In this document: piece by piece, positions 558-15,743 of the stretch
How the letters are laid out: each line of letters starts with the position of its first letter
How positions within the stretch are numbered: the first letter of the stretch is position 1
Assembly (NCBI GenBank): GCA_040756715.1
Contig: JBFLYE010000070.1
Span: 1 to 15,743 of the forward strand
From: JBFLYE01 sp040756715 [NCBI: bacterium]
GTDB lineage: Bacteria; UBA9089; UBA9088
Length of the DNA stretch: 15,743 nt
Reading direction: 5' to 3'
Notes under the pieces: model-generated
Database searches by the model: none
Seen by the model: only the letters and a program-made list of their open reading frames with translations
Told to the model about the DNA's origin: nothing
Made by a program: the position numbers and the translations under genes

Positions 558-3500
558 TTATTTTACCACGCCGAGCTTTCCTATTTTCTTATCTTTGCCA
601 TGGGATAGAACATAGATGTAGAGACCAGAGGCAATGTTATTAAGGTTTAAGGTTGGGTCATTATCAAAATTTTCTTTTTCAAATACACATTCGCCTGCGA
701 TGTTGTAAAGCCTTATCTTTGTGTTTGAAGGAAGATATTCAAATTTAACATTGTCAACATTCTTTGCTGGGTTTGGATAGCAAATAACATTATTTAGGCT
801 TAATGGCTTTATCCCCTCCTGAATTTGAACATTAACCTTCTTGTTCTCATTATCCCTTATATCTATATCCTCAATCTTTAAGCTATCTGCCCTTATCCTT
901 ACAATAGTGCCAGAGGGAGGAAGAAGGGGAAGAGAGGCGAAGGCAAGAGCCATTCTTCCTCCCTCTATAGAGGGAAGGGATATAATATAAGGCTCTGTTT
1001 TTACAGATATTTCTCCTTCAAAGGAAAATGTAATATTTCCACCCATTATATTGGAAAAACCAGAATACTTTACCACAAACTCCCCATTTTCTCTTTCAAT
1101 CCAGATACAACCCCCAACTTGCGACTCCTGACTCCCGACTCCTAACTTATTCCTCCAATTCCACATCAGGCAGAACACCATTAAATCTTCAAAATCAATT
1201 ATACCATCTGGGTTTGAAATAAGGTCGGGTGGAATTCCAGATGCTGGACCAATGTCATACTCTAGCTTATTTTTCTTCCAATTTGTTGTAATTAACATAA
1301 GGTCATCAAAATCTATTTTTTCATTTCTATTTAGGTCTCCTACAAGATATTTTCTTATTGTTATTGTTCCCGAAAAGCTCTCTGCGGCAATTTTTGTGTT
1401 ATTTGAGTCTCGTAAGTCTACTAAAGAGAATAATAAACTTGCTGTTCCCTCCTTAAGGGCTTTAAATGTTAGGTTTGCCAATGTAATTAAGCCCTGTGTT
1501 GAGCTTCCAAGCTTTGCAGAAATAATTATAATCTTTCCGGTGAGGGTTGAGCTTAAAAATAGATCGGAAAAATTTCCCTTTTCAATACTTAAAGGCTCTA
1601 ATTTATCGTCTGGATATAAAATCTCAATGTTTGCTCCCATAAGCTCAGAGGTTTCTATGAAAATTCCTATTGTCTTCGTTCCCTCTATGAATACAGAGGA
1701 ATCACTTGGCTCTATTTTTACTGTGGCAAGGTTTTCCTCTAAAGAAAGCCTATATGGAATCCATTTTCCATTCCTATCCATAAGCCTTGTTTGAGGTAAT
1801 ATGGCAAGATTTGGATTTTTCTCTTTAAATTTTACCACAAGCAATGTTCCATTTCCTTGTATTTCTCCTTGTAGAAATCCAAAGGAAAATGTTATGCTTC
1901 CATTACCATAGAGGCTTTGAAGAATTGCTGCATCCTCAATGAATTGCCCCTTCTCTATTCCAACACATTCAAGGCTTTCCTTATAAGAAAGGTAAATTGA
2001 GCCTCCGATCAAGCCAGATACATCTTCTATATTTACATTAAAATTATCTCCATCCTGCTCAATAGAGAGGGCTACATTGCTATTATTTAGAATGCTTGCA
2101 ATACCCCTTGTGCTTCCAAAATTCTCTCTTAAGATATAAAAATCAAGTAGGTCTACGCTTCCATCATGGTTAAAGTCAGAGGCAAGGTTTGGCCCTGATT
2201 GTCCAAATTCGCTTCTTAAAATATAGAAATCAAGCAAATTTACCTGACCACTTCCATCTGCATCACCTGGGATTGTTACTGATGCAGAGCCATTTATAAC
2301 ATTAAATGGGATGTTACCTCCCGAATTGTCTATAAGGTTTGTCTTTTCTATACTAGGATTGGTTGATACTTCAAAGGAAATTGCAGATGTTCCAGATGTT
2401 CCACAAAACGCAATGGATGCTATTGTTCCAAAACCCGTTGCCGAGCCAGAGAATAAAGCAGATGAGTAGATAAGGGTTCCTGAGGCATTGTTAAATGATA
2501 AGGATAAAAGGCTTGCACCCGATGGAAAGCTTCCCTGGGTTATGGTTGAAACAGAGAGGACATCTGGGTTAAATGAAAGATAAACGGATACACCAATCAG
2601 ATTAGAGACATTGTCTACCATTAGATTAACGGTTCCTATAGAGCCAGAGCCAATGACAAGAAAGGATGGAGAAAGGTAAAGCGTGGTTGAGCCTGTTATA
2701 GCAGAAGCAACATTTGAATAGCTTGATGTTCCTATCTCATTAAAAGCTGCTACCCGATAATAGTATCTTGTGCTGGGAGAAAGATTTGTATCTGAATAGA
2801 TAGAGGCTGTGGTTGTTGTGATAAAAGAAAAGGCTGTAATGGTAGAGCCCCTTTCTATAGCAAACCCAAGCTCATTATTTGAGTTATCAGACCAGGAAAG
2901 GTCTATCCTTGAGTTTGATACAGGGATTGCTGTAAGGCTTGAAGGAGAACTTGGTGGAAGATCAAATGTTGTGGCAGATGCTGTGTTTGAATAGGTTGAT
3001 TGTCCACCGGTAAGGTTATAGCTACAAACCCTATAATAATATGTTGTGCTTGCAGAAAGCCCGGTATCTGTGTATGTGCTTTGTGTTGTCGTCCCAATAG
3101 AAACAAAGGCTGTAATGGTAGAGCCCCTTTCAATGATAAACCAAAGCTCATTGCTTGAGTTGTCATTCCAGGAAAGGTCAATGGTTGATGAACCGGTTGC
3201 GGTTGCTTGTAGATTAGATGGTGCAATAGGAGCAAGATCAAATGTTGTAGCAGATGCAATGTTTGAATAGCTTGATGTTCCATAGAAATTATAGGCATAA
3301 ACCCGGTAATAATATGTTGTATTGCTTGAAAGGCTTGTATCTGTGTAGGTTGCATAGGTGGTTGTTCCGATATTGAAAAGGCTTGTATCTGTTGTCCCCC
3401 TTTCCATAATAAACCAAAGCTCGTTTGTGGAATTATCAGACCAGGCAAGGTTTATTGTAGAAGATGAAACAGCCGTAGCTTGTAGATTTGATGGTGGATT

Positions 3501-4559
3501 TGGAGGGGTAGCTGTCCCTAAGGTTGCATACTTAAGATTGCCCTGTGTGGCATCATAATAGCTTATCTGGGGAATGTTGTTATAAATTGCAATAGAGCTA
3601 TACATTCCAACATCATCAGTAGAATCAATTGTCTCGGTTGTCCAGCTCGTGCCACTTCCATAGGCAACTTTTAAGTCTTTGTTCGTGGCATCATAATAGG
3701 AAATCCATACCGTGTTTGAGCCATCTATAGCGATTGAACAGAATTTTCCAACATCGCCAATTGAATCTATGGTTCTTAATGTCCAGGTTCCATCAGGGTT
3801 TATTGCATATTTAAGGTCTGTATTTGTTGCATCATAATAGGCAATATGCAGAATGTAATCCTTCCCAGTAAGGGAGGAATATTGACCAACATCGCCTGTT
3901 GTATCAATGGTTCTAAAGCCCCAATTTGTTGGATTCCAAAAGGCAAACCTTAAATCGCCATCCGTGGCATCGTAGTATGTCATACAGGGAAGGCTATCCT
4001 CTACAAGAAAAAGGGATGAAAACCTTCCCCTGTCTTTATTTAGAGCATAATCTACGGTTTCTGTTGCCCATTCTGAACCTGTCCAAAATGCATATTTTAA
4101 TGCCTTGTTCTTCTCGTCATAGTAGCTTATATTTGGGTATTGTTCTCTATCTATCTTTAAGGAGCTAAATTTTCCAAGCTGCGGAAAATCAACAATTGAG
4201 CTTGCTGTGCCAACTCCTTTTGTATGTAAAAGCCTTTGATATGTTGCATTGTAATGGCTTATGTGAGGACAATTGTTGCTGTCTAAGTCAATGGATGTAT
4301 AATATCCAGATGAGCCTGTTGTTCCTACATTATTTGTAGTCCAGGTGGAACCATTAAAATATGTATATTTTAGCCCTCCTGTGGTAAGGTTTGTGTATGA
4401 GATATGTGCTCTTCCCAAAGAATCACAGGCAATGGACGAATACAGGCCAACATCATCTAAAGAATTATCTATGGTTTGTATCTGCCAGGAAGAGGCAAAA
4501 AGGCACAGAGGCACAGAGGCACAAAGAATAAAAAATAATCTAATGAATGTATAACGCAT
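558..4559 (-). CDS. Secreted multidomain protein: 7-fold repeat domain, three FN3, four cohesin-like, two dockerin-like modules, T9SS-like tail
   Basis: This 1333-residue protein has an N-terminal signal peptide (about residues 1-23, cleavage near LFASS). Residues about 35-348 hold seven repeats of about 46 residues, each centred on a motif like ISYYDATNKDLKYA (near 53, 99, 144, 194, 239, 286 and 332); seven copies suggest a beta-propeller. Three fibronectin III domains follow (353-439, 443-531, 537-622), rich in Thr/Ser with the TYYYRV strand. Four cohesin-like beta domains lie at about 624-763, 828-950, 951-1069 and 1150-1249. They are interrupted by dockerin-type duplicated calcium loops at 764-816 (GDADGSGQVNLLD and DFNHDGSVDLLD) and a more degenerate pair at 1071-1136. 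The C-terminus (1250-1333) begins near CYPNPAKN and ends in a lysine-rich strand, as in T9SS type A sorting domains. I see no enzymatic domain, so it is probably a cell-surface or matrix scaffold or adhesin. Domain calls are from family knowledge; the partner is unknown. Confidence 0.85.
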   Translation of the reverse strand: MRYTFIRLFFILCASVPLCLFASSWQIQTIDNSLDDVGLYSSIACDSLGRAHISYTNLTTGGLKYTYFNGSTWTTNNVGTTGSSGYYTSIDLDSNNCPHISHYNATYQRLLHTKGVGTASSIVDFPQLGKFSSLKIDREQYPNISYYDEKNKALKYAFWTGSEWATETVDYALNKDRGRFSSLFLVEDSLPCMTYYDATDGDLRFAFWNPTNWGFRTIDTTGDVGQYSSLTGKDYILHIAYYDATNTDLKYAINPDGTWTLRTIDSIGDVGKFCSIAIDGSNTVWISYYDATNKDLKVAYGSGTSWTTETIDSTDDVGMYSSIAIYNNIPQISYYDATQGNLKYATLGTATPPNPPSNLQATAVSSSTINLAWSDNSTNELWFIMERGTTDTSLFNIGTTTYATYTDTSLSSNTTYYYRVYAYNFYGTSSYSNIASATTFDLAPIAPSNLQATATGSSTIDLSWNDNSSNELWFIIERGSTITAFVSIGTTTQSTYTDTGLSASTTYYYRVCSYNLTGGQSTYSNTASATTFDLPPSSPSSLTAIPVSNSRIDLSWSDNSNNELGFAIERGSTITAFSFITTTTASIYSDTNLSPSTRYYYRVAAFNEIGTSSYSNVASAITGSTTLYLSPSFLVIGSGSIGTVNLMVDNVSNLIGVSVYLSFNPDVLSVSTITQGSFPSGASLLSLSFNNASGTLIYSSALFSGSATGFGTIASIAFCGTSGTSAISFEVSTNPSIEKTNLIDNSGGNIPFNVINGSASVTIPGDADGSGQVNLLDFYILRSEFGQSGPNLASDFNHDGSVDLLDFYILRENFGSTRGIASILNNSNVALSIEQDGDNFNVNIEDVSGLIGGSIYLSYKESLECVGIEKGQFIEDAAILQSLYGNGSITFSFGFLQGEIQGNGTLLVVKFKEKNPNLAILPQTRLMDRNGKWIPYRLSLEENLATVKIEPSDSSVFIEGTKTIGIFIETSELMGANIEILYPDDKLEPLSIEKGNFSDLFLSSTLTGKIIIISAKLGSSTQGLITLANLTFKALKEGTASLLFSLVDLRDSNNTKIAAESFSGTITIRKYLVGDLNRNEKIDFDDLMLITTNWKKNKLEYDIGPASGIPPDLISNPDGIIDFEDLMVFCLMWNWRNKLGVGSQESQVGGCIWIERENGEFVVKYSGFSNIMGGNITFSFEGEISVKTEPYIISLPSIEGGRMALAFASLPLLPPSGTIVRIRADSLKIEDIDIRDNENKKVNVQIQEGIKPLSLNNVICYPNPAKNVDNVKFEYLPSNTKIRLYNIAGECVFEKENFDNDPTLNLNNIASGLYIYVLSHGKDKKIGKLGVVK
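1116..1149. repeat. Degenerate heptamer tandem repeat (GACTCCT type) in a protein linker
   Basis: Three adjacent 7-bp units at 1123-1143 read GACTCCT, GACTCCC and GACTCCT, flanked by two more degenerate heptamers (AACTTGC before, AACTTAT after). The stretch encodes the hydrophilic linker LGVGSQESQVGG between the second dockerin-like module and the last cohesin-like domain of the large secreted protein. It resembles the short heptameric repeats (STRR-like) found elsewhere in this window. Confidence 0.7.
4491..4522. repeat. Octamer tandem repeat (AGAGGCAC type) within a signal-peptide coding region
   Basis: Four contiguous 8-bp units (AGAGGCAA, AAAGGCAC, AGAGGCAC, AGAGGCAC) fill 4491-4522. On the coding strand they encode residues about 13-23 of the large secreted protein, the hydrophobic core and cleavage region CASVPLCLFAS. 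The periodicity is seen directly; an insertion origin is inference. Confidence 0.75.
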
Positions 4560-6389: not shown

Positions 6390-7397
6390 ATGAGAATAGC
6401 TATTGCTTGTGGTGGGACAGGGGGGCATATCTATCCAGGAATAGCTATAGCAAAGGAATTAAAAGAGCCTTTCTTTATCACAGGGAAAAAGGGCATATCT
6501 TGCGAAATAATCAAAAAATCTGGCTTTAAGGTTTATGTCATTCCCATATCATTTTGGAAAAGGAGGCTATTTTCATTAAATACGCTAGGTGTTACATTTT
6601 CTAATCTCTTCTGCATAATTGCCTCTTTTTTTATTCTCCTTAAGGAAAGACCAAAGGCGATTATCGGAATGGGAGGATATCCATCATTTCCACCTATTTT
6701 AGCAAGCCTTTTTCTTGGAATCAAAAGGATAATTCATGAGCAGAATGCAAAGATGGGGCTGGCAAATAGGCTTCTTTCAAAGATTGCAACAAAGGTTGCA
6801 CTATCTTTTGAAAATACAGAATTTGCCCCTAAGAATGCAATATTTACCGGATGCCCAATAAGGAAAGAGATAGGAAAAATAGGAAGGGAGGAGGGGCTTT
6901 CATTCTTTGGCTTGAAGGATAAAAAGACAATCCTTGTAATGGGTGGCTCGCAAGGCTCCACTAAGATAAATGAGGCATTCCTTGAGGTTACTCCAAATCT
7001 TTTAGAATTCAATATAATCTGGCTAACCGGGAAAAAGGATTACTCAAGGATAAAATCCGCACTCCGCACTCCGCATTCCGCAATTAAAATATTTCCCTTT
7101 CTATTCGAGATGGAATATGCCTATGCAGGGGCTGATGTAGTCATAGGAAGGGCGGGTGCTGTATCTATTGCTGAGATAAAAAGGTGTGGAATCCCAGCCA
7201 TTCTTATCCCATATCCTTTTTCTGCTGACCAACACCAATCAAAGAATGCAGAAGCCTTAAAGGATGCCATTGTTATCAAAGAGGAAAATCTTTCAAAAGA
7301 TAGCCTTTTGGATGCCATTTTTAAAGTAAGGAATAGAGAAAAATCTCCCTTTAAGCTTCAAAGCACAGAAAGGTTTTTGAAATTGCTATACGGTTAA
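6390..7397 (+). CDS. murG: UDP-N-acetylglucosamine--N-acetylmuramyl-(pentapeptide) pyrophosphoryl-undecaprenol N-acetylglucosamine transferase (MurG)
   Basis: MurG transfers GlcNAc from UDP-GlcNAc to lipid I to make lipid II, on the inner face of the cytoplasmic membrane. The 335-residue sequence shows the GT28 signatures in order: the N-terminal glycine loop GGTGGHIYPGIAIAKEL (8-24), GMGGYPSFPP (93-102), HEQNAKMGLANR (116-127), the second glycine loop MGGSQGSTKIN (184-194), and the nucleotide-sugar site GRAGAVSIAEI (253-263) followed by PYPFSADQHQSKNA (274-287). A run of four GC-rich heptamers (7056-7083) lies in the coding sequence and encodes part of residues 222-232, between the GGSQGS and GRAGA motifs; the family varies there. 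The gene stands without mur or fts neighbours in the window. Its 3' end overlaps convergent hisC by 12 bp. Confidence 0.96.
   Translation: MRIAIACGGTGGHIYPGIAIAKELKEPFFITGKKGISCEIIKKSGFKVYVIPISFWKRRLFSLNTLGVTFSNLFCIIASFFILLKERPKAIIGMGGYPSFPPILASLFLGIKRIIHEQNAKMGLANRLLSKIATKVALSFENTEFAPKNAIFTGCPIRKEIGKIGREEGLSFFGLKDKKTILVMGGSQGSTKINEAFLEVTPNLLEFNIIWLTGKKDYSRIKSALRTPHSAIKIFPFLFEMEYAYAGADVVIGRAGAVSIAEIKRCGIPAILIPYPFSADQHQSKNAEALKDAIVIKEENLSKDSLLDAIFKVRNREKSPFKLQSTERFLKLLYG
7056..7083. repeat. Heptamer tandem repeat (TCCGCAC type) inside murG
   Basis: Four contiguous 7-bp units (TCCGCAC twice, then TCCGCAT and TCCGCAA) occupy 7056-7083. They are more GC-rich than the surrounding murG sequence and encode residues in a variable region between conserved motifs. 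The total of 28 bp is not a multiple of three, so if inserted it was accommodated with flanking change. Confidence 0.75.
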
Positions 7398-11090: not shown

Positions 11091-11118
11091 CGCTTATCCC
11101 CCCTTATCGCTTCGCTTA

Positions 11119-11222
11119 AATTGTAAATTTTAAATTGTAGATTTTAAATTTTATCCACCTTCAATTTACAATTTGCATTTTACAATTTGCAATTATGTTT
11201 AAGCTTTAGCTAAACACATACA
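11119..11222. repeat. AT-rich heptamer inverted-arm element, copy A
   Basis: The left arm (11119-11153) is five 7-bp units of the type AATTGTA/AATTTTA. The right arm (11162-11196) is five 7-bp units of the type CAATTTA/CAATTTG, roughly complementary to the left arm, so the region can fold into a long hairpin. It is followed by the tail TTAAGCTTTAG plus CTAAACACATACA (11199-11222). The same arm-arm-tail order recurs at 13725-13912. It fills the gap between the PilT-like ATPase and the coiled-coil gene, which otherwise holds only a Shine-Dalgarno. Confidence 0.75.
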
Positions 11223-11232
11223 AATTTTATCA

Positions 11233-12345
11233 TCACACCTCAATTACTATCTTTTCCTTTTCCTCTTGTTCCTTCTTTTTTATCCCAAATTCATGGAGAA
11301 GCTGTCTTAAGGCATTTGGGTTATTTGAAGATGAGGTTGCATCATCAAGGCTTATAATGCCATTGATAACCAAGGCAACAAGGGATTGCTCCATTGTCTG
11401 CATCTTATAATGATACACAGAACCTTCAATTGCCTTATAGATATTTCCAAATTCTCCCTTTTCAATGTATGTCTTTATGGTGGGTGAATTTATCATAATC
11501 TCTAAAGCGGCAACCCTTCCCTTTCCATCCTGTCTCCTGATAAGACGCTGTGAAATAACCGCCCTTAAGGTCATAGCAAGCTCAATCATTATCTGATGGT
11601 GCATATCGGATGGAAAATAGGATAAAACCCTATCCATAGTAGATGCGGCAGATGATGTATGAAGGGTTGATAAAAGCAAGTGTCCTGCCTCGGCTGCCTT
11701 TAAGGCTATTTCAATTGTCTCCCTATCCCTCATTTCACCAATAAGTATAACATCAGGATCCTGCCTCAATAATGATGGAAGGGCATCCTCATAAGATAAA
11801 ACATCAGAACCAACCTCCCTCTGAGATATACTCGCCTTTTTATCAGCAAAAACATATTCTATAGGGTCTTCAATGGTTGCTATATGGCAGGAAACATTTG
11901 AATTTATCTCACCAATTAAGGATGCCAGGGTGGTTGATTTTCCAGAGCCGGTTGGCCCTGTAACCAGGATAAGACCTGTTGGGTATGCAACAATCTCCTT
12001 TAAAACAGAAGGAAGACCAAGCTGCTCTATGGTCGGAATCTTTGACTCAATCTTTCTTATAACCATAGCAATTGTTCCCTTGTTATTGAAGATATTTACC
12101 CTGAACCTATATCCCTTAAATGAATAGCCAAGGTCTGTCCAATGCCTTTTATTAAATTTCTCAACCTGGCTAGTATTCATAATAGACATAGCCATACCCT
12201 CTGTTTCTTCCCAGGTAAATGGAGGGCAATTGTCTAAGGAGACCAGCTTTCCATGGATTCTATAGATGGGAGATCTCTCTGCCTTTATGTGGAGGTCTGA
12301 TGCCTCCTTTTCAATCATTATAGAAAGAAGCTCATTAAATTCCAT
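11233..12345 (-). CDS. pilT: PilT/PilU-family type IV pilus retraction ATPase
   Basis: This is a 370-residue GspE-superfamily ATPase with the PilT layout: an N-terminal PAS-like domain with ASDLHIKAERSPIYRIHGKL (15-34), then a RecA-like core. Walker A is GPTGSGKST (130-138), the Asp box TIEDPIEYVF (157-166), Walker B region DPDVILIGEMRD (196-207), and the His box STLHT (226-230). PilT hexamers depolymerise type IV pili at the inner membrane base, driving twitching and DNA uptake. The AIRNLIRE motif typical of PilT is not clear (here SPTIKTYIEKGE), and the C-terminal tail after 350 is lysine/glutamate rich, so PilU or a divergent PilT is possible. No other pilus gene lies within the window. 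A promoter with 6-nt spacing to the ATG indicates a separate transcription unit. Confidence 0.92.
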   Translation of the reverse strand: MEFNELLSIMIEKEASDLHIKAERSPIYRIHGKLVSLDNCPPFTWEETEGMAMSIMNTSQVEKFNKRHWTDLGYSFKGYRFRVNIFNNKGTIAMVIRKIESKIPTIEQLGLPSVLKEIVAYPTGLILVTGPTGSGKSTTLASLIGEINSNVSCHIATIEDPIEYVFADKKASISQREVGSDVLSYEDALPSLLRQDPDVILIGEMRDRETIEIALKAAEAGHLLLSTLHTSSAASTMDRVLSYFPSDMHHQIMIELAMTLRAVISQRLIRRQDGKGRVAALEIMINSPTIKTYIEKGEFGNIYKAIEGSVYHYKMQTMEQSLVALVINGIISLDDATSSSNNPNALRQLLHEFGIKKKEQEEKEKIVIEV

Positions 12346-12351
12346 ACAATT

Positions 12352-12380
12352 AGAATAAAAAAAAACCCTAATTTTTGCAA
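12352..12380 (-). promoter_or_regulatory. Promoter of the PilT-like ATPase gene, leaderless spacing
   Basis: On the minus strand TTGCAA (12380-12375), exactly 17 nt, and TATTCT (12357-12352) are followed by 6 nt and the ATG. Both boxes differ from consensus by two bases, but the spacing is ideal and repeats the pattern of nusA and the MOSC gene. Confidence 0.6.
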
Positions 12381-12469
12381 CTTAAAAATTGCTTGTAATA
12401 ACTTGCAATAACTTATGAAACTCCTTCTAATAAACACGAATTTTTAACTTTTGGTAAGTCAGCAGGGTC

Positions 12470-12581
12470 GTTTCAATCCTTGTTTTAATGGAAGATGGTT
12501 TCAACCACTAGAACCTACCCAATCTTTGCGTTCAATGAGTTTCATGTTTCAATCCTTGTTTTAATGGATGTTGGTCTCACT
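12470..12581 (-). CRISPR. Minimal CRISPR array: two 36-bp repeats and one 40-bp spacer
   Basis: Repeat units lie at 12470-12505 and 12546-12581 and are identical over the first 23 bases (starting GTTTCAATCCTTG). They differ at five of the last thirteen. The spacer is 12506-12545. On the minus strand the repeat starts GTTGAAACC and ends GGATTGAAAC, which gives the usual ATTGAAAC 5' crRNA tag, so transcription is inferred to be leftward, as for the cas genes. The copy at 12546-12581 is therefore the leader-side repeat and also appears degenerate relative to the more symmetrical copy at 12470. The array is too short to define the consensus. Confidence 0.78.
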
Positions 12582-12790
12582 CCGTAATTTCGCTATAACT
12601 TCTTTTTAAAGAACAAGTTAAACTTCTTTTAAGAGAGGTCATTTTGCTTAATTGAAAGATCATTTTTTGCCTCAAATCGGCTATTTACTACTTCCATTAC
12701 ATACTTTTCTATTACATAACCATCGGTTTATCAAGGAGTTATGGTTTTGGTCTTTCTAAATATCTATAAATCCTTGCCAAAGATCTGATT
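12582..12790 (-). promoter_or_regulatory. Probable CRISPR leader region between cas4 and the array
   Basis: These 209 bp are AT-rich and hold no convincing gene. They contain a direct repeat of about 16 bp (12597-12612 and 12621-12636, both beginning AACTTCTTTT) and a CATAAC/GTTATG inverted pair near 12716-12745. Position upstream of the array on its inferred strand makes a leader likely. No cas2 gene is seen here. Confidence 0.45.
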
Positions 12791-13378
12791 TCATATGCAG
12801 ATGTTTCTATAACAACAATCAACGCAGCGAATCGGATACATTGTCCTCTTGGGATAAAACCCTTTCTGAACAATAGCCAATATCTCATCTACTATCCTTA
12901 AGGCATCGTCAAAATTCTTCTGCTGAAAGGGTATTTCTTTAATCTTATGCCTGCTGCGAATATAACAGATATAGCCCTTTTTAACCTCTTGACCATAGTT
13001 GTCTTTGACTAAAAGACCATAGAGCACAGATTGATACCTATGGGTGCGATAAGTAGTCTCTTTGTATTCGGCAAACTTATAGTCAAGTGGAGCCAGGGTG
13101 CCGTCGTCTAAAACCAGAACCTCATCCACAATCCCTTTCAAATGATACTTCTCTGAGGCTAAATAGACCAGAGTATCTTTTGCAGTTACTCCAAGCTTCT
13201 TTCGCAGATACTCTCTGTTGACCTTTTCTCTCTTATCATGTAGCTCTCTGCCCTTTAGAACCTTGTATCTCTGCTCCTCATGTTGAGGGATACACAGCAC
13301 ATTCATATAGAAGATAAACCGGGGGCAGTAGAGATATTCAATTACTTCTGACGGTGTTATGTATATTTCCCCATTCAT
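12791..13378 (-). CDS. cas4: CRISPR-associated exonuclease Cas4
   Basis: Cas4 is a RecB-like nuclease with an iron-sulfur cluster; it trims and selects prespacers during CRISPR adaptation with Cas1-Cas2. This 195-residue protein looks full length. The four cluster cysteines are in place: C18 in EYLYCPRFIFY, then C185, C188 and C194 in the C-terminal CVDCCYRNIC. The nuclease core is visible as H47 (GRELHDKR), D85 (GIVDEV), D99 and K101 (PLDYKF), and the QxxxY motif Q116-Y120. It begins 6 nt after a reading frame that ends at 13385 downstream of the truncated cas1, with no clear Shine-Dalgarno, so it is probably in the cas1 transcript. Its intact active site contrasts with the truncated Cas1 beside it. 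Confidence 0.93.
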   Translation of the reverse strand: MNGEIYITPSEVIEYLYCPRFIFYMNVLCIPQHEEQRYKVLKGRELHDKREKVNREYLRKKLGVTAKDTLVYLASEKYHLKGIVDEVLVLDDGTLAPLDYKFAEYKETTYRTHRYQSVLYGLLVKDNYGQEVKKGYICYIRSRHKIKEIPFQQKNFDDALRIVDEILAIVQKGFYPKRTMYPIRCVDCCYRNICI

Positions 13379-13424
13379 AATTCGTTAGAAAAACTTAGAG
13401 AGAATCTCATCTGTAACCAGCTTT

Positions 13425-13697
13425 TTATCGAATGCCTGACCTAAAAGTTTTACCTAATTTTGAATGCCATACCCGACCATAAGGGTCACCAAACTGATCT
13501 AAGAAGATAATGTCGATATTATTATCCATAGCAAACTTTATGGCATCGGTTGAGATATAAACCGAGGTGGTGATCAAGATGGATTCTACCTTCTTGCAAG
13601 ATACCTCAAAGGTGCGGTCTTCGCACTTTACCAGGAAGCAGTTATCCTTCTTCCTTAAATATGAGCCATAGGTATTGACAACTATAGTATCTTCCAT
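13425..13697 (-). pseudogene. cas1: Truncated Cas1 (N-terminal domain only)
   Basis: The 90-residue product aligns by eye to the N-terminal beta domain of Cas1 integrase: MEDTIVVNTYGSYLRKKDN at the start, then VESILITTSVYISTDAIKFA and NNIDIIFLDQFGDPYGRVWHSKLG (residues about 58-81). Cas1 is normally about 300-340 residues; the whole helical catalytic domain with its Glu/His/Asp metal site is missing, so it should be inactive. The frame stops at 13425, but a shifted frame continues VKLLGQAFDKKLVTDEILSKFF to a stop at 13385. That may be a remnant of a Cas1 helix after an internal deletion, though I am unsure. Its promoter and first five codons lie in the 123-bp direct repeat also found at the right edge. 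Confidence 0.8.
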
Positions 13698-13805
13698 TAC
13701 TTAGTGCAAAAATAGTATTTAAGAAATTTTGAATTCTAAATTTTGAATTTTGAATTGAAAAAGGTTAAGTTTTATAAAATTTTGAATTCTAAATTTTGAA
13801 TTTTG
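13683..13805. repeat. Perfect 123-bp direct repeat, copy 1
   Basis: Every base of 13683-13805 matches 15621-15743 (offset 1938). It covers the first five codons of cas1 (MEDTI), the upstream promoter-like region and most of two AATTTTG-type heptamer arms. The base before it differs (C versus T), fixing the left boundary. The right boundary is unknown because copy 2 ends at the window edge. Confidence 0.95.
13712..13739 (-). promoter_or_regulatory. Candidate promoter of cas1 (same sequence as upstream of the right-edge ORF)
   Basis: On the minus strand TTAGAA (13739-13734), a 16-nt spacer and TACTAT (13717-13712) precede the cas1 ATG by 14 nt. The identical copy at 15650-15677 precedes the ORF ending at 15635. 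The match is moderate, and the -35 box overlaps the heptamer repeats. Confidence 0.35.
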
Positions 13806-13912
13806 AATTGAAGGTTTAAGTTTTATAAAATTTTTTCCCTTTTAATTCAAAATTCAACATTCAAAATTCATAATTTTATAAAGTTTTCCTTAAGATTATC
13901 TAAACACATACA
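13725..13912. repeat. AT-rich heptamer inverted-arm element, copy B
   Basis: Five AATTTTG-type heptamers (13725-13759) are repeated after 53 bp (13778-13812). The opposite-sense heptamers AATTCAA/CATTCAA follow (about 13844-13871), so the halves can pair as a long hairpin. The tail TTAAGATTAT plus CTAAACACATACA (13890-13912) matches the tail of copy A. It occupies most of the 269-bp gap between the 141-residue gene and cas1; apart from it and the cas1 promoter I see nothing there. Confidence 0.75.
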
Positions 13913-13966
13913 TTTTGTAAAGCGTTATGGAATTAACTATAATTGCATTTTTTTCCACAAAACACC

Positions 13967-14392
13967 TTATCGCAGATTGTAAAGGCAGAGTAAGGCTGCC
14001 CAACCAGATGGTAGCATATCTGGAGCCTCTTTTAATTCTTTACCATATTTGACAGCCATCTCCAGGAAGAACTTAGCGTGAAAGAAAGCCTCAACAAAAA
14101 CCCTGGTATGGTGCGTCCAATTTTTATTATGCTCCATTTCAAATTTCTTTCCACTGGCGCCAGCTTCAATAATCTCCTGGAATTCCTTACAAAAACCCTG
14201 ACCTTCAGGTGCTATAGACCTCAAAGCTTCAACAATTTTCCTGGTATTATCTTGAAGACCATAGACCTTGAAAGAATGATAATAGAAACGATAAACAAAG
14301 TCTTCATAAAACCAATGAGAATTCATCTCCTCCAAAAGCTTCTCAAGCTCAGGGAGTTTTGCTTTAATGTTGGCGAGCAGTTGGTCATCCAT
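13967..14392 (-). CDS. Conserved protein of unknown function in the cas region
   Basis: I recognise this 141-residue sequence only as a conserved bacterial type of unknown role, recalled from memory with a similar C-terminal MLPSGWAALLxLYNLR. It is soluble, mostly helical and rich in aromatics. An acidic N-terminal helix (LLANIKAKLPELEKLLEEMN) is followed by YEDFVYRFYYHSFKVYGLQ (29-47), an EMEHNKNWTHHTRVFVEAFFHAKFFLEMA segment (86-113) and the terminal MLPSGWAALLCLYNLR. Several His, Glu and Asn residues at 86-105 (H88, H94, H95, H105) could bind metal, but this is speculation. The start has a good Shine-Dalgarno (GAGGAGAG) about 7 nt upstream. It lies 35 bp after cas6b on the same strand, so it may be co-transcribed with it; a link to CRISPR function is unproven. 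Confidence 0.72.
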   Translation of the reverse strand: MDDQLLANIKAKLPELEKLLEEMNSHWFYEDFVYRFYYHSFKVYGLQDNTRKIVEALRSIAPEGQGFCKEFQEIIEAGASGKKFEMEHNKNWTHHTRVFVEAFFHAKFFLEMAVKYGKELKEAPDMLPSGWAALLCLYNLR

Positions 14393-14406
14393 ATTTATTC
14401 TCTCCT

Positions 14407-14434
14407 CTACTTCCTACTTCCCATTTCTTACTTC
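14407..14434. repeat. Heptamer tandem repeat (CTACTTC type) at the cas6b 3' end
   Basis: Four contiguous 7-bp units (CTACTTC twice, CCATTTC, TTACTTC) fill 14407-14434. They cover the cas6b stop codon and the short gap before the next gene. Read on the minus strand they give a GGAAGTAG-like purine run directly before the Shine-Dalgarno of that gene. Confidence 0.7.
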
Positions 14435-15090
14435 CTCTTTTTCACTGTCCCAAACCCACGGGATACAGATTTACCAATCCCCCAGTAATCAGGTATTTCA
14501 AAGTTGACTGAGAAATCTCCCAAAAACCCAAGCATCGGCGTGCCTTTGAGTGAAGTAGAGACCTCTTTAATCTCATCAATCCTTGCAATAATTGGCTCTG
14601 GCACTGTATAGCCAAGGCTCTTTGAGATAGAGATGATATTGCCAATAAGGATACTTGATAGCAGTTCCTTCTTCTTTGTCCAGCTTCCCAGCCGCTGATA
14701 TCTACCATAGTTTTTCTCATTCAACGCCAGCCAGGGGGTGAGGAAGGAGTAGGATGTGCTGCTGTTAGCGATTCCAAAATAGTCTGTTTTGAGTACAATA
14801 CTTTTTTCTTTTATTTGATATTCAAAACGACCAATCTTTAAATAATCAATATCTTCATAGATCCCTTGTAGGATATCAGCCCCCTGGTTAATTCCAAGAA
14901 CAAAAGGTCTGCCATTGAATATTTTGTATTGTATTAGCGGTGCTTTATAAAGGAGTTGGCGGTCAGTTAAATGTTGGTGAATAAGCGTATATTCTTTGAA
15001 TTTATCAGCAAAGAATCCCCTCAGCTTATCCGCAGTTCCTTTTACAGCTTCATCACATGTAAAATGAAAAATCAAGGTTTTAACCTTCAT
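14428..15090 (-). CDS. cas6: CRISPR-associated endoribonuclease Cas6 (Cas6b type)
   Basis: Cas6 cuts the repeat in the CRISPR transcript to make crRNAs carrying the 8-nt 5' tag. The 220-residue sequence fits the Cas6b subgroup. The N-terminal half has MKVKTLIFHF, then RGFFADKF and IHQHLTDRQLLYKAPLIQYK (37-56), with H37/H40 as candidate catalytic histidines. The middle has LTPWLALNEKNYGRYQRLGS (117-136) and the LIGNIISISKSLGY helix (148-161). The C-terminal glycine-rich RAMP loop is PDYWGIGKSVSRGFGTVKK (200-218). Length is normal. Its ATG overlaps the stop of the upstream ORF in an ATGA arrangement, implying translational coupling. The nearby array repeat ends in ATTGAAAC, consistent with Cas6 processing. 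Confidence 0.85.
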   Translation of the reverse strand: MKVKTLIFHFTCDEAVKGTADKLRGFFADKFKEYTLIHQHLTDRQLLYKAPLIQYKIFNGRPFVLGINQGADILQGIYEDIDYLKIGRFEYQIKEKSIVLKTDYFGIANSSTSYSFLTPWLALNEKNYGRYQRLGSWTKKKELLSSILIGNIISISKSLGYTVPEPIIARIDEIKEVSTSLKGTPMLGFLGDFSVNFEIPDYWGIGKSVSRGFGTVKKRK

Positions 15091-15635
15091 CTCTTAGACA
15101 AAACATCTCCTATTCCTTCTATCACAAACACTTTTTCCTCGGATACTTTGACGGTAAGTGATGATGGTTTTAATATCTTTTGCTCTTCTCTTAGCGGAAC
15201 CATATAACTTACCAATGGAAAATTCCTATCCCTCTTTTTACATCTTTCATGCATTAAGTAAACCTGTCCATTTCCTTCTTCTATTTTTGTATCTTTAGTA
15301 AATGGAACAGGATACTCTGTTTGGATGATCTTGTTTTTTCTATCATCAGCTATATCTTTTATCATAATTTTGCTATCCAAAGAAATGGGAGATTCACTAT
15401 CACCACAGGTTAGAGGCGATATTTTAACTGTTTCTGCAATATCATTTATCAGCCTATCGTTATTAAATATTGCCACTACCTGCAATTTCTTAGAGTAGGC
15501 AAACTGTCTTCCTAAGGCATTGGTAAATTTTCCACCTAAAGTATCTTCCCATTTAACGATGGCAGAAGTAGTATAGCTTTTGATAACACAGGGGCTTAAA
15601 AGTCTTGAGCCCGCCCATATTATAGTATCTTCCAT
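15087..15635 (-). CDS. Unidentified ORF coupled to cas6b, with a start duplicated from cas1
   Basis: I do not recognise this 182-residue product. It begins MEDTI, identical in DNA to the first five codons of cas1, because the 123-bp direct repeat ends exactly there; from residue 6 (IWAGSRLLSPCVIKSY) the two differ completely. The rest is a mixed beta-rich soluble sequence with no signal peptide, transmembrane segment, glycine-rich RAMP loop or nuclease motif that I can see. It contains KWEDTLGGKFTNALGRQFAYSKK (29-51) and a positively charged MHERCKKRDRNFP stretch. It overlaps cas6b by 4 bp, so it is probably a cas-operon gene, or the remaining part of one whose own N-terminus was replaced during rearrangement. 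An assembly chimera is also possible. Confidence 0.55.
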   Translation of the reverse strand: MEDTIIWAGSRLLSPCVIKSYTTSAIVKWEDTLGGKFTNALGRQFAYSKKLQVVAIFNNDRLINDIAETVKISPLTCGDSESPISLDSKIMIKDIADDRKNKIIQTEYPVPFTKDTKIEEGNGQVYLMHERCKKRDRNFPLVSYMVPLREEQKILKPSSLTVKVSEEKVFVIEGIGDVLSKR

Positions 15636-15743
15636 TACTTAGTGCAAAAATAGTATTTAAGAAATTTTGAATTCTAAATTTTGAATTTTGAATTGAAAAA
15701 GGTTAAGTTTTATAAAATTTTGAATTCTAAATTTTGAATTTTG
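15621..15743. repeat. Perfect 123-bp direct repeat, copy 2, ending at the window edge
   Basis: This is identical to 13683-13805. It includes the start and promoter-like sequence of the ORF at 15087-15635 and continues into the AATTTTG heptamers up to the last base. It may extend beyond the window, and the edge may be a contig end caused by this repeat. Confidence 0.95.

What the first reader, a model, noticed from the sequence alone, without database searches (positions are those of the whole stretch)
11119..13912. Two intergenic elements share hairpin arms plus a CTAAACACATACA tail
Copies A (11119-11222) and B (13725-13912) have heptamer arms of opposite sense and then a near-identical tail (TTAAG, an A/T-rich link, CTAAACACATACA), although the heptamer words in the arms differ. 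A conserved tail with interchangeable arms implies a defined non-coding element, perhaps mobile, a structured RNA, or a boundary/terminator module. Both lie in the same orientation, 3' of one minus-strand gene and 5' of the next.
Basis: seen in the sequence. Interest (0 to 1): 0.65.

Follow-up and report, generated by a model that had tools for sequence, protein, structure and literature searches.

The report
Transposon ends with swappable hairpin arms
The shared 13-letter tail is the end of a family of small jumping-DNA elements whose middle is a hairpin built of short repeated words that can differ between copies; the second copy is a different, very abundant jumping element that carries a relic of that end.

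Summary
In detail: CTAAACACATACA occurs 107 times exactly in this 1.55 Mb genome (reversed control 0). It stands for two things.

(A) Its first 12 letters are the terminal inverted repeat GTATGTGTTTAG…CTAAACACATAC of short non-coding transposons. Of 78 end pairings, 14 (13 independent sites) have a perfect 8-bp flanking duplication, against 0.3% of mismatched pairings. The same ends bound IS66-type transposase fragments. Window copy A keeps only the right end.

(B) Copy B lies inside another element, 13683-13941: ends TATAGT…ACTATA, a single TA at two empty sites, 102 end matches here and one in the sister species. There the 12-mer is an internal relic that two variants lack.

Arms are often degenerate 7-8-nt words. 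In about three shell groups one shell carries different or no arms. Covariation support is absent, so a conserved RNA is unsupported.

Best reading: two MITE families, one probably moved by IS66-type transposase, one by an unknown TA-duplicating enzyme, with interiors remodelled by slippage and strand switching. New variant of a known kind; the remodelling is unproven.

The parts
11210..11221 (+). Right terminal inverted repeat CTAAACACATAC of window copy A (family A, 8-bp duplicating)
   Evidence: 8-bp duplications seen at other copies, not at this one
11118..11188 (+). Heptamer hairpin of copy A: arms 11118-11143 and 11163-11188
   Evidence: DNA fold of 11108-11221 z -2.89, 1 of 200 shuffles as good; aligns with L075, L207, L219, L220
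11091..11117 (+). Presumed decayed left end of copy A; no left inverted repeat recognised here
   Evidence: no partner for the copy A end; alignment
13683..13941 (+). Complete MITE of family B, 259 bp, ends TATAGT...ACTATA, TA target
   Evidence: TA empty sites of two other copies; DNA fold of 13684-13941 z -4.36, 0 of 200 shuffles
13718..13882 (+). Word-built arms of copy B; the left arm is tandemly duplicated compared with the common 241-bp form
13900..13911 (+). Internal relic of the family A end inside copy B
   Evidence: absent from variants L262 and L263
13915..13943 (+). Outward promoter-like site TTGTAA-17-TATAAT, its last two bases supplied by the flank
   Evidence: 10 of 12 matches; consensus match only
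13681..13710 (-). Outward promoter-like site at the left end, TTTGCA-18-TATAGT
   Evidence: 9 of 12 matches; consensus match only
15621..15743 (+). Partial third copy, family B, cut by the contig end

Best explanation
Copies A and B belong to two families of miniature inverted-repeat transposable elements. Family A has 12-bp ends GTATGTGTTTAG...CTAAACACATAC and duplicates 8 bp (shown); it is very probably moved in trans by an IS66-family transposase, of which broken genes next to the same ends were found (fragments shown, action in trans inferred). Family B has ends TATAGT...ACTATA, inserts at TA (shown at two empty sites), has spread to about a hundred copies in this species, and carries an A-type end as an internal relic, probably because an A-type element once entered its ancestor (inferred). 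Interiors are hairpins, often of degenerate 7-8-nt words. The ends that a transposase must recognise stay constant while the hairpin grows, shrinks or is replaced, most likely by polymerase slippage and hairpin-templated strand switching (inferred).
For: 107 exact copies, control 0. Of 78 end pairings with at most 3 mismatches in total, 14 have identical 8-mers on both sides (0.3% of mismatched pairings); L232 and L234 lie in a duplicated flank, so 13 independent sites in G000, G001, G004 and G014. IS66: N-terminus inside the TIR-bounded, 8-bp-duplicated L214 and in L090 (82% identical), 39% identical (E 8e-15) to L281, which has zf-IS66 above its cut-off and the end about 130 bp upstream; L099 has an IS66 C-terminus about 30 bp before the end. 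B: ends constant in the 27 complete copies without N, single TA at two empty sites in G001, ANT-TA-ANT target bias, 102 end matches in G000 against 1 in G001. Arms: 13 of 23 cores have a period that at most 1 of 100 shuffles reaches, 17 of 23 fold with z of -2 or lower; same shell with different or no arms; L262 has both arms duplicated in parallel.
Against: 64 of the 78 pairings lack the 8-bp duplication, more than ten of them with perfect ends (some are nested or alternative pairings of one locus). No intact IS66 element was seen, the L090 and L214 fragments alone do not reach an IS66 model, and L214 is not similar to the other IS66 N-terminus L093 (E 1.4). No transposase with B-type ends was found (one DDE_3 gene, ends do not match). 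The A-type relic in B has no 8-bp duplication left. 6 of 23 cores do not fold better than z -2, and L087, L189, L255 and L256 show no period (39 to 55 of 100 shuffles reach it). Arm remodelling was not seen happening; 15 of 44 shell-matched pairs keep their cores. Draft assembly, many contigs end in the arms.
Confidence: 0.75

Rival explanations
1. The arms were captured ready-made: after excision or during repair, word arrays that exist elsewhere in the genome or in other genomes were copied or recombined into the shell, with no growth in place.
For: The word array AATTTTGAATTTTGAATT also occurs in other genomes: 19 of 242, 13 of them outside the phylum; reversed control 1 match in 1 genome. 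165 word arrays in the fetched loci lie more than 220 nt from any listed end, though at a permissive score.
Against: The words of the L219 arms (TAAATTG) resemble the sequence at the insertion point of the armless shell L218 (TTTAATTG), as growth in place predicts; L262 has both arms duplicated in parallel.
Confidence: 0.3
2. One composite family: the element with both end types is the unit, and A copies are broken or one-ended derivatives of B.
For: B contains the A-type end and a weaker inverted copy of it (L103); L041, L049, L057 and L088 join B-type arms to an exposed A-type end.
Against: A elements with 8-bp duplications occur in G004 and G014, where the B end has 1 match (G004) or was not sought (G014), and their interiors are unlike B. 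B variants without the A end exist.
Confidence: 0.1
3. A conserved structured RNA or a transcription boundary: the arms are kept as a hairpin because the transcript matters.
For: Strong hairpins in many interiors; copies often intergenic.
Against: No covariation support, no Rfam family, no terminator-like site inside copy B, borders with target duplications, 11 of 26 B junctions in open frames of 100 aa or more.
Confidence: 0.05
4. Selection for start codons or promoters: B spreads because its ends give ATG codons or outward promoters to genes.
For: Both ends carry an outward ATG 15 nt from the border; two window ORFs start in it. TTGTAA-17-TATAAT at the right end; the flank supplies AT in 21 of 71 right ends.
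Against: Fused open frames of 100 aa or more: 6 of 36 left and 2 of 71 right ends in the ATG frame, 2 of 36 and 6 of 71 in the other usable frame, so no preference. Promoter sites are consensus matches; none was tested.
Confidence: 0.1

Closest known systems
IS66-family insertion sequences and MITEs derived from them
   Same: 8-bp duplication, ends next to IS66-type transposase fragments
   Different: Non-coding, 80-526 bp in the clearest cases, interiors often word-built hairpins; ends begin GTAT, whereas IS66 ends are recalled as GTAA
Correia elements (CREE) of Neisseria
   Same: Ends begin TATAG, TA target, about a hundred copies, length variants by deletion and tandem duplication, promoter sequence formed at the ends (PMC2649163 and PMC10969869, passages)
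   Different: Only the first letters of the ends agree; other core, other phylum, carries the A-type relic
Nostoc tRNA-Leu(UAA) intron P6b hairpin of degenerate heptanucleotide repeats
   Same: Hairpin arms made of degenerate heptamers with changing copy number and two motif classes (PMC3488679, passages)
   Different: Sits in a group I intron at one locus; here in mobile elements at many loci
Heptameric repeats of cyanobacteria, Xanthomonas and Beggiatoaceae
   Same: 7-nt units enriched between genes and found in distant bacteria; slippage proposed (PMC4692102 and PMC4679880, passages)
   Different: Those are direct repeats; here complementary arrays between transposon ends

Membership tests
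IS66-family MITE (family A) | 8-bp target duplication | tested here: met
   14 of 78 pairings, 13 independent sites; 0.3% in mismatched pairings
IS66-family MITE (family A) | ends shared with an IS66-type transposase gene | tested here: met
   fragments only: L214, L090, L281, L099, L249
IS66-family MITE (family A) | intact autonomous relative | tested here: not met
   PF03050 matches in 4 of 4 genomes searched are fragments or broken frames
IS66-family MITE (family A) | ends beginning GTAA (recalled) | tested here: not met
   ends begin GTAT
Correia element (family B) | TA target duplication and ends TATAG[CT] | tested here: met
   CREE search patterns seen in passages of PMC2649163
Correia element (family B) | rest of the CREE repeat and core | tested here: not met
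   compared by eye: sequences against the patterns; only the first letters agree
Correia element (family B) | IHF site and RNase III processing | not tested
   none
IS630/Tc1-mariner MITE (family B) | TA duplication | tested here: met
IS630/Tc1-mariner MITE (family B) | DDE_3 transposase with matching ends in the genome | tested here: not met
   one DDE_3 gene, no matching ends around it
Structured RNA family | compensatory changes in the stem | tested here: not met
   few sequences, so weak

The most novel reading that the evidence does not exclude
There is a general process, at work in several distant bacterial phyla, that rewrites the interior of small inverted-repeat elements by growing complementary arrays of 7-8-nt words from a local seed, so that one transposon shell can carry many unrelated hairpins; hairpin diversity of MITEs would then record hairpin-templated synthesis and not descent.
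Probability: 0.2. Interest if true: 0.75.

Novelty: new variant of a known kind. Interest (0 to 1): 0.48.

Why it matters
It gives concrete cases in which the ends of a MITE stay fixed while its hairpin differs, so that the origin of heptameric repeats and of MITE interiors, noted but unexplained in bacteria, becomes testable with elements that differ only in their arms. It also accounts for many breaks in this assembly, and shows a high-copy element inserted at the start of CRISPR-associated genes.

Tried and rejected
Start-codon delivery by B: no frame preference; rejected as a general function.

Selected RNA: rejected on covariation and Rfam. In one search the predicted pairs cover only the right part; the alignment has five rows, two of them incomplete elements.

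IS630 partner for B: the single DDE_3 gene has no matching ends.

Empty site for A element L045: the orthologous G001 interval lacks the element but the junction has diverged, so not counted. L080 gave no alignable junction; L018 and L086 did not resolve their sites. L064 and L224 share an old A-type end at one orthologous place. Flanks of the G001 B copy (L206) had no clear match in G000 or G002. The second B empty site joins the two ends of one contig whose last and first 124 bases are the same.

Naming the organism: the NusA scan found nothing and the PilT scan gave at best 50% identity; the phylum remains unnamed (19 genomes held). B has no match in plasmid or phage records, nor has the L090 N-terminus in plasmids.

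Literature: among the rows listed I saw no title or abstract start about exchangeable word-built MITE arms; five papers were opened, in passages only; most subscription journals are not held.

Limits and dropped rows: draft assembly, with runs of N in some arms, so counts are lower bounds and some end pairings may be wrong. I fetched 99 of the 107 exact own copies. The 26 elements were picked by hand from the pairings (near-identical L047 and L086 left out), and 3 had cores too short to score. L262 and L263 were fetched because their ends differ, so '2 of 27 without the 12-mer' is not a frequency.
Full report
The finding. Two intergenic stretches share arms made of heptamers and the tail CTAAACACATACA. 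Both are present as described. In the whole genome (1,552,737 bases, 218 contigs) the 13-mer has 107 exact matches against 0 for the reversed control, and 194 with one mismatch allowed against 1. Of 41 genomes 7 have it: this one, the same genus (50), two of the same order (7 and 19) and three of the same phylum (6, 2, 1); 34 have none. The 14-mer AGCTAAACACATAC is in 7 of the 19 genomes held for the phylum, 55 times here and 63 times in the sister species G001.

Two families. I read 99 own copies with flanks. With one mismatch allowed in the 12-mer, 69 sites were followed by the same 30 bases and 49 were not (the 49 include both ends of some elements and a few chance-like matches inside genes). 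The 69 are family B, the 49 mainly family A.

Family A. In A the sequence after the 12-mer differs from site to site, and an inverted partner GTATGTGTTTAG lies 80-526 bp away in the clearest cases. Over all loci fetched by then, 78 pairings with at most 3 mismatches in total were tested: 14 have identical 8-mers outside the two ends, whereas 0.3% of mismatched pairings do. They lie in G000 (3), G001 (6), G004 (3) and G014 (2). Two of the G004 sites have homologous flanks, so there are 13 independent sites. The other 64 pairings do not have it; some are nested or alternative pairings at one locus, but more than ten have perfect ends and no duplication, which I can explain only by recombination between copies (inference). 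So the 13-mer is a 12-bp end plus one flanking base.

The partner gene. L214 (G001), with the duplication CTTCCTTT, and L090 (G000) contain the same TnpC-like N-terminus (82% identical). That of L214 is 39% identical (E 8e-15) to L281 (G001), a 200-aa frame with zf-IS66 (37.1 bits, cut-off 27.3) and a sub-threshold NCBIfam IS66 match, with the end about 130 bp upstream. L099 (G003) has an IS66 DDE C-terminus (6.7e-8) and the end about 30 bp beyond its stop. L249 (G003) has the end just upstream of a related N-terminus. L090 shares its subterminal stretch with the 181-bp MITEs L024, L047 and L086. Against: alone, the L090 and L214 fragments hit only coiled-coil models and sub-threshold DUF6444; the other IS66 type present, L093, is not similar to L214; and no intact element was seen. 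That IS66 elements duplicate 8 bp and begin GTAA is recalled, and the second point does not fit exactly. Window copy A keeps the right end (11210-11221) and a heptamer hairpin that aligns with L075, L207, L219 and L220; its left end is not recognisable.

Family B. The window copy is 13683-13941. Of 27 complete copies without N, 12 are 241 bp; 259, 245, 243 and 240 bp have 2 each, and 242, 193, 236, 208, 190, 269 and 164 bp one each. Ends are TATAGTATCTTCCATTAC and GTTATGGAATTAACTATA. The right end, with two mismatches allowed, has 102 matches in G000, 1 in G001, 0 in G003, 1 in G004. Two sites in G001 show a single TA where G000 has the element (L084 against L203; L048 against L272, the second using flanks from the two ends of one contig). 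Flanks favour A-N-T on either side of TA. The 12-mer ends 30 bp from the right border and is absent from L262 and L263, so B does not need it. A weaker copy of the end lies on the other side (L103), so B probably formed when an A-type element entered an older shell; no 8-bp duplication remains to prove it. No matching transposase was found.

Arms. In 23 element cores of 60 nt or more, 13 show a 6-12-nt period that at most 1 of 100 shuffles reaches, best period 7 or 8 in 12 of these 13; 17 of 23 fold with z of -2 or lower; L087, L189, L255 and L256 show no period. Words include GGCACAAA, AATTGCA/AATTGTA, GTGTCAAA and GGAAGTA and AATTTTG. The B shell has AATTTTG arms in G000 and GGTGCTCT words in G001, with near-identical outer parts of about 68 and 60 bp. 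The 94-bp shell L218 lacks the roughly 120-bp heptamer hairpin that L219 has at the same place. L184 and L189 share shells, with core identity 0.58 against 0.48 for shuffled cores. L234 and L242 share only the right shell. In a scan of 58 elements, 44 pairs match at both shells and 15 of these have matching cores (0.79 or more; some rows are alternative borders of one locus). So exchange is real but limited to a few groups.

How it may work. A transposase needs only the ends, so the interior is free. An inverted pair of arms can fold when single-stranded; slippage inside word arrays changes their number and strand switching copies one arm into the other. Parallel duplication of both arms in L262 and the likeness of L219's words to the junction of the armless shell fit this; the one-armed duplication in the window copy shows that change can also affect one arm alone. 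This step is inference. Capture of word arrays from elsewhere stays open, because the same array occurs in 13 genomes outside the phylum, against one control match.

Effect at the sites. B junctions lie in open frames of 100 aa or more in 11 of 26 cases, against 87% of 499 nearby TA sites: a bias to intergenic DNA, but many genes are hit. The right end forms TTGTAA-17-TATAAT where the flank supplies AT, as here and in 21 of 71 right ends. This resembles the promoters of Correia elements (PMC10969869, PMC2649163, passages) but is a consensus match; in the scanned stretch 6 promoter-like sites were found against 2.3 (sd 1.5) expected. The start-codon idea failed. Covariation support is absent.

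Novelty. MITEs, IS66 elements, Correia-like TA elements, heptameric repeats and heptanucleotide hairpins are each known. In the listings of the searches named in Tried and rejected I saw no description of word-built, exchangeable arms inside one transposon shell. I file this as a new variant of a known kind.

Noticed in passing
window 13425-13697 (-) and 15087-15635 (-): Both ORFs begin with MEDTI, five codons that lie inside the left end of a B element (ATGGAAGATACTATA). The first is a Cas1 cut to about 80 of 283 profile positions; the second had no Pfam or NCBIfam match. B has inserted at the start of CRISPR-associated genes.
   Followed up: partly
window 12470-15090: A decayed CRISPR-Cas locus: repeats at 12470-12503 and 12546-12582, Cas4, truncated Cas1 and Cas6b.
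   Followed up: no
window 1123-1147, 4491-4523, 7056-7082, 14407-14436: Short 7-8-nt word arrays (GACTCCT, AGAGGCAC, TCCGCAC, CTACTTC), the first three inside long ORFs and far from any listed end: the word habit is not confined to the elements.
   Followed up: no
242 genomes: AATTTTGAATTTTGAATT occurs in 13 genomes outside the phylum, often as longer runs of the heptamer, against one match for the reversed word: the same word recurs in distant bacteria.
   Followed up: partly
L048 (G000:C97, 3101 bp): The first and last 124 bases are identical and lie in B, and the two end flanks are neighbours in G001: a circle, a tandem duplication or an assembly artefact.
   Followed up: partly
L099:1381-1400 and L249:1259-1278 (G003): The same octamer GTTTCTTT lies outside the end at both places, although they carry opposite halves of IS66-type genes; unexplained.
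   Followed up: no
L248 and L252 (G003): An A-type end sits at one and the same junction in two contigs; in L252 an IS3-like rve gene fragment follows it, as if the two had been copied together.
   Followed up: no
L262:999-1267 (G000:C131): A B variant with both arms tandemly duplicated in parallel and without the 12-mer.
   Followed up: partly
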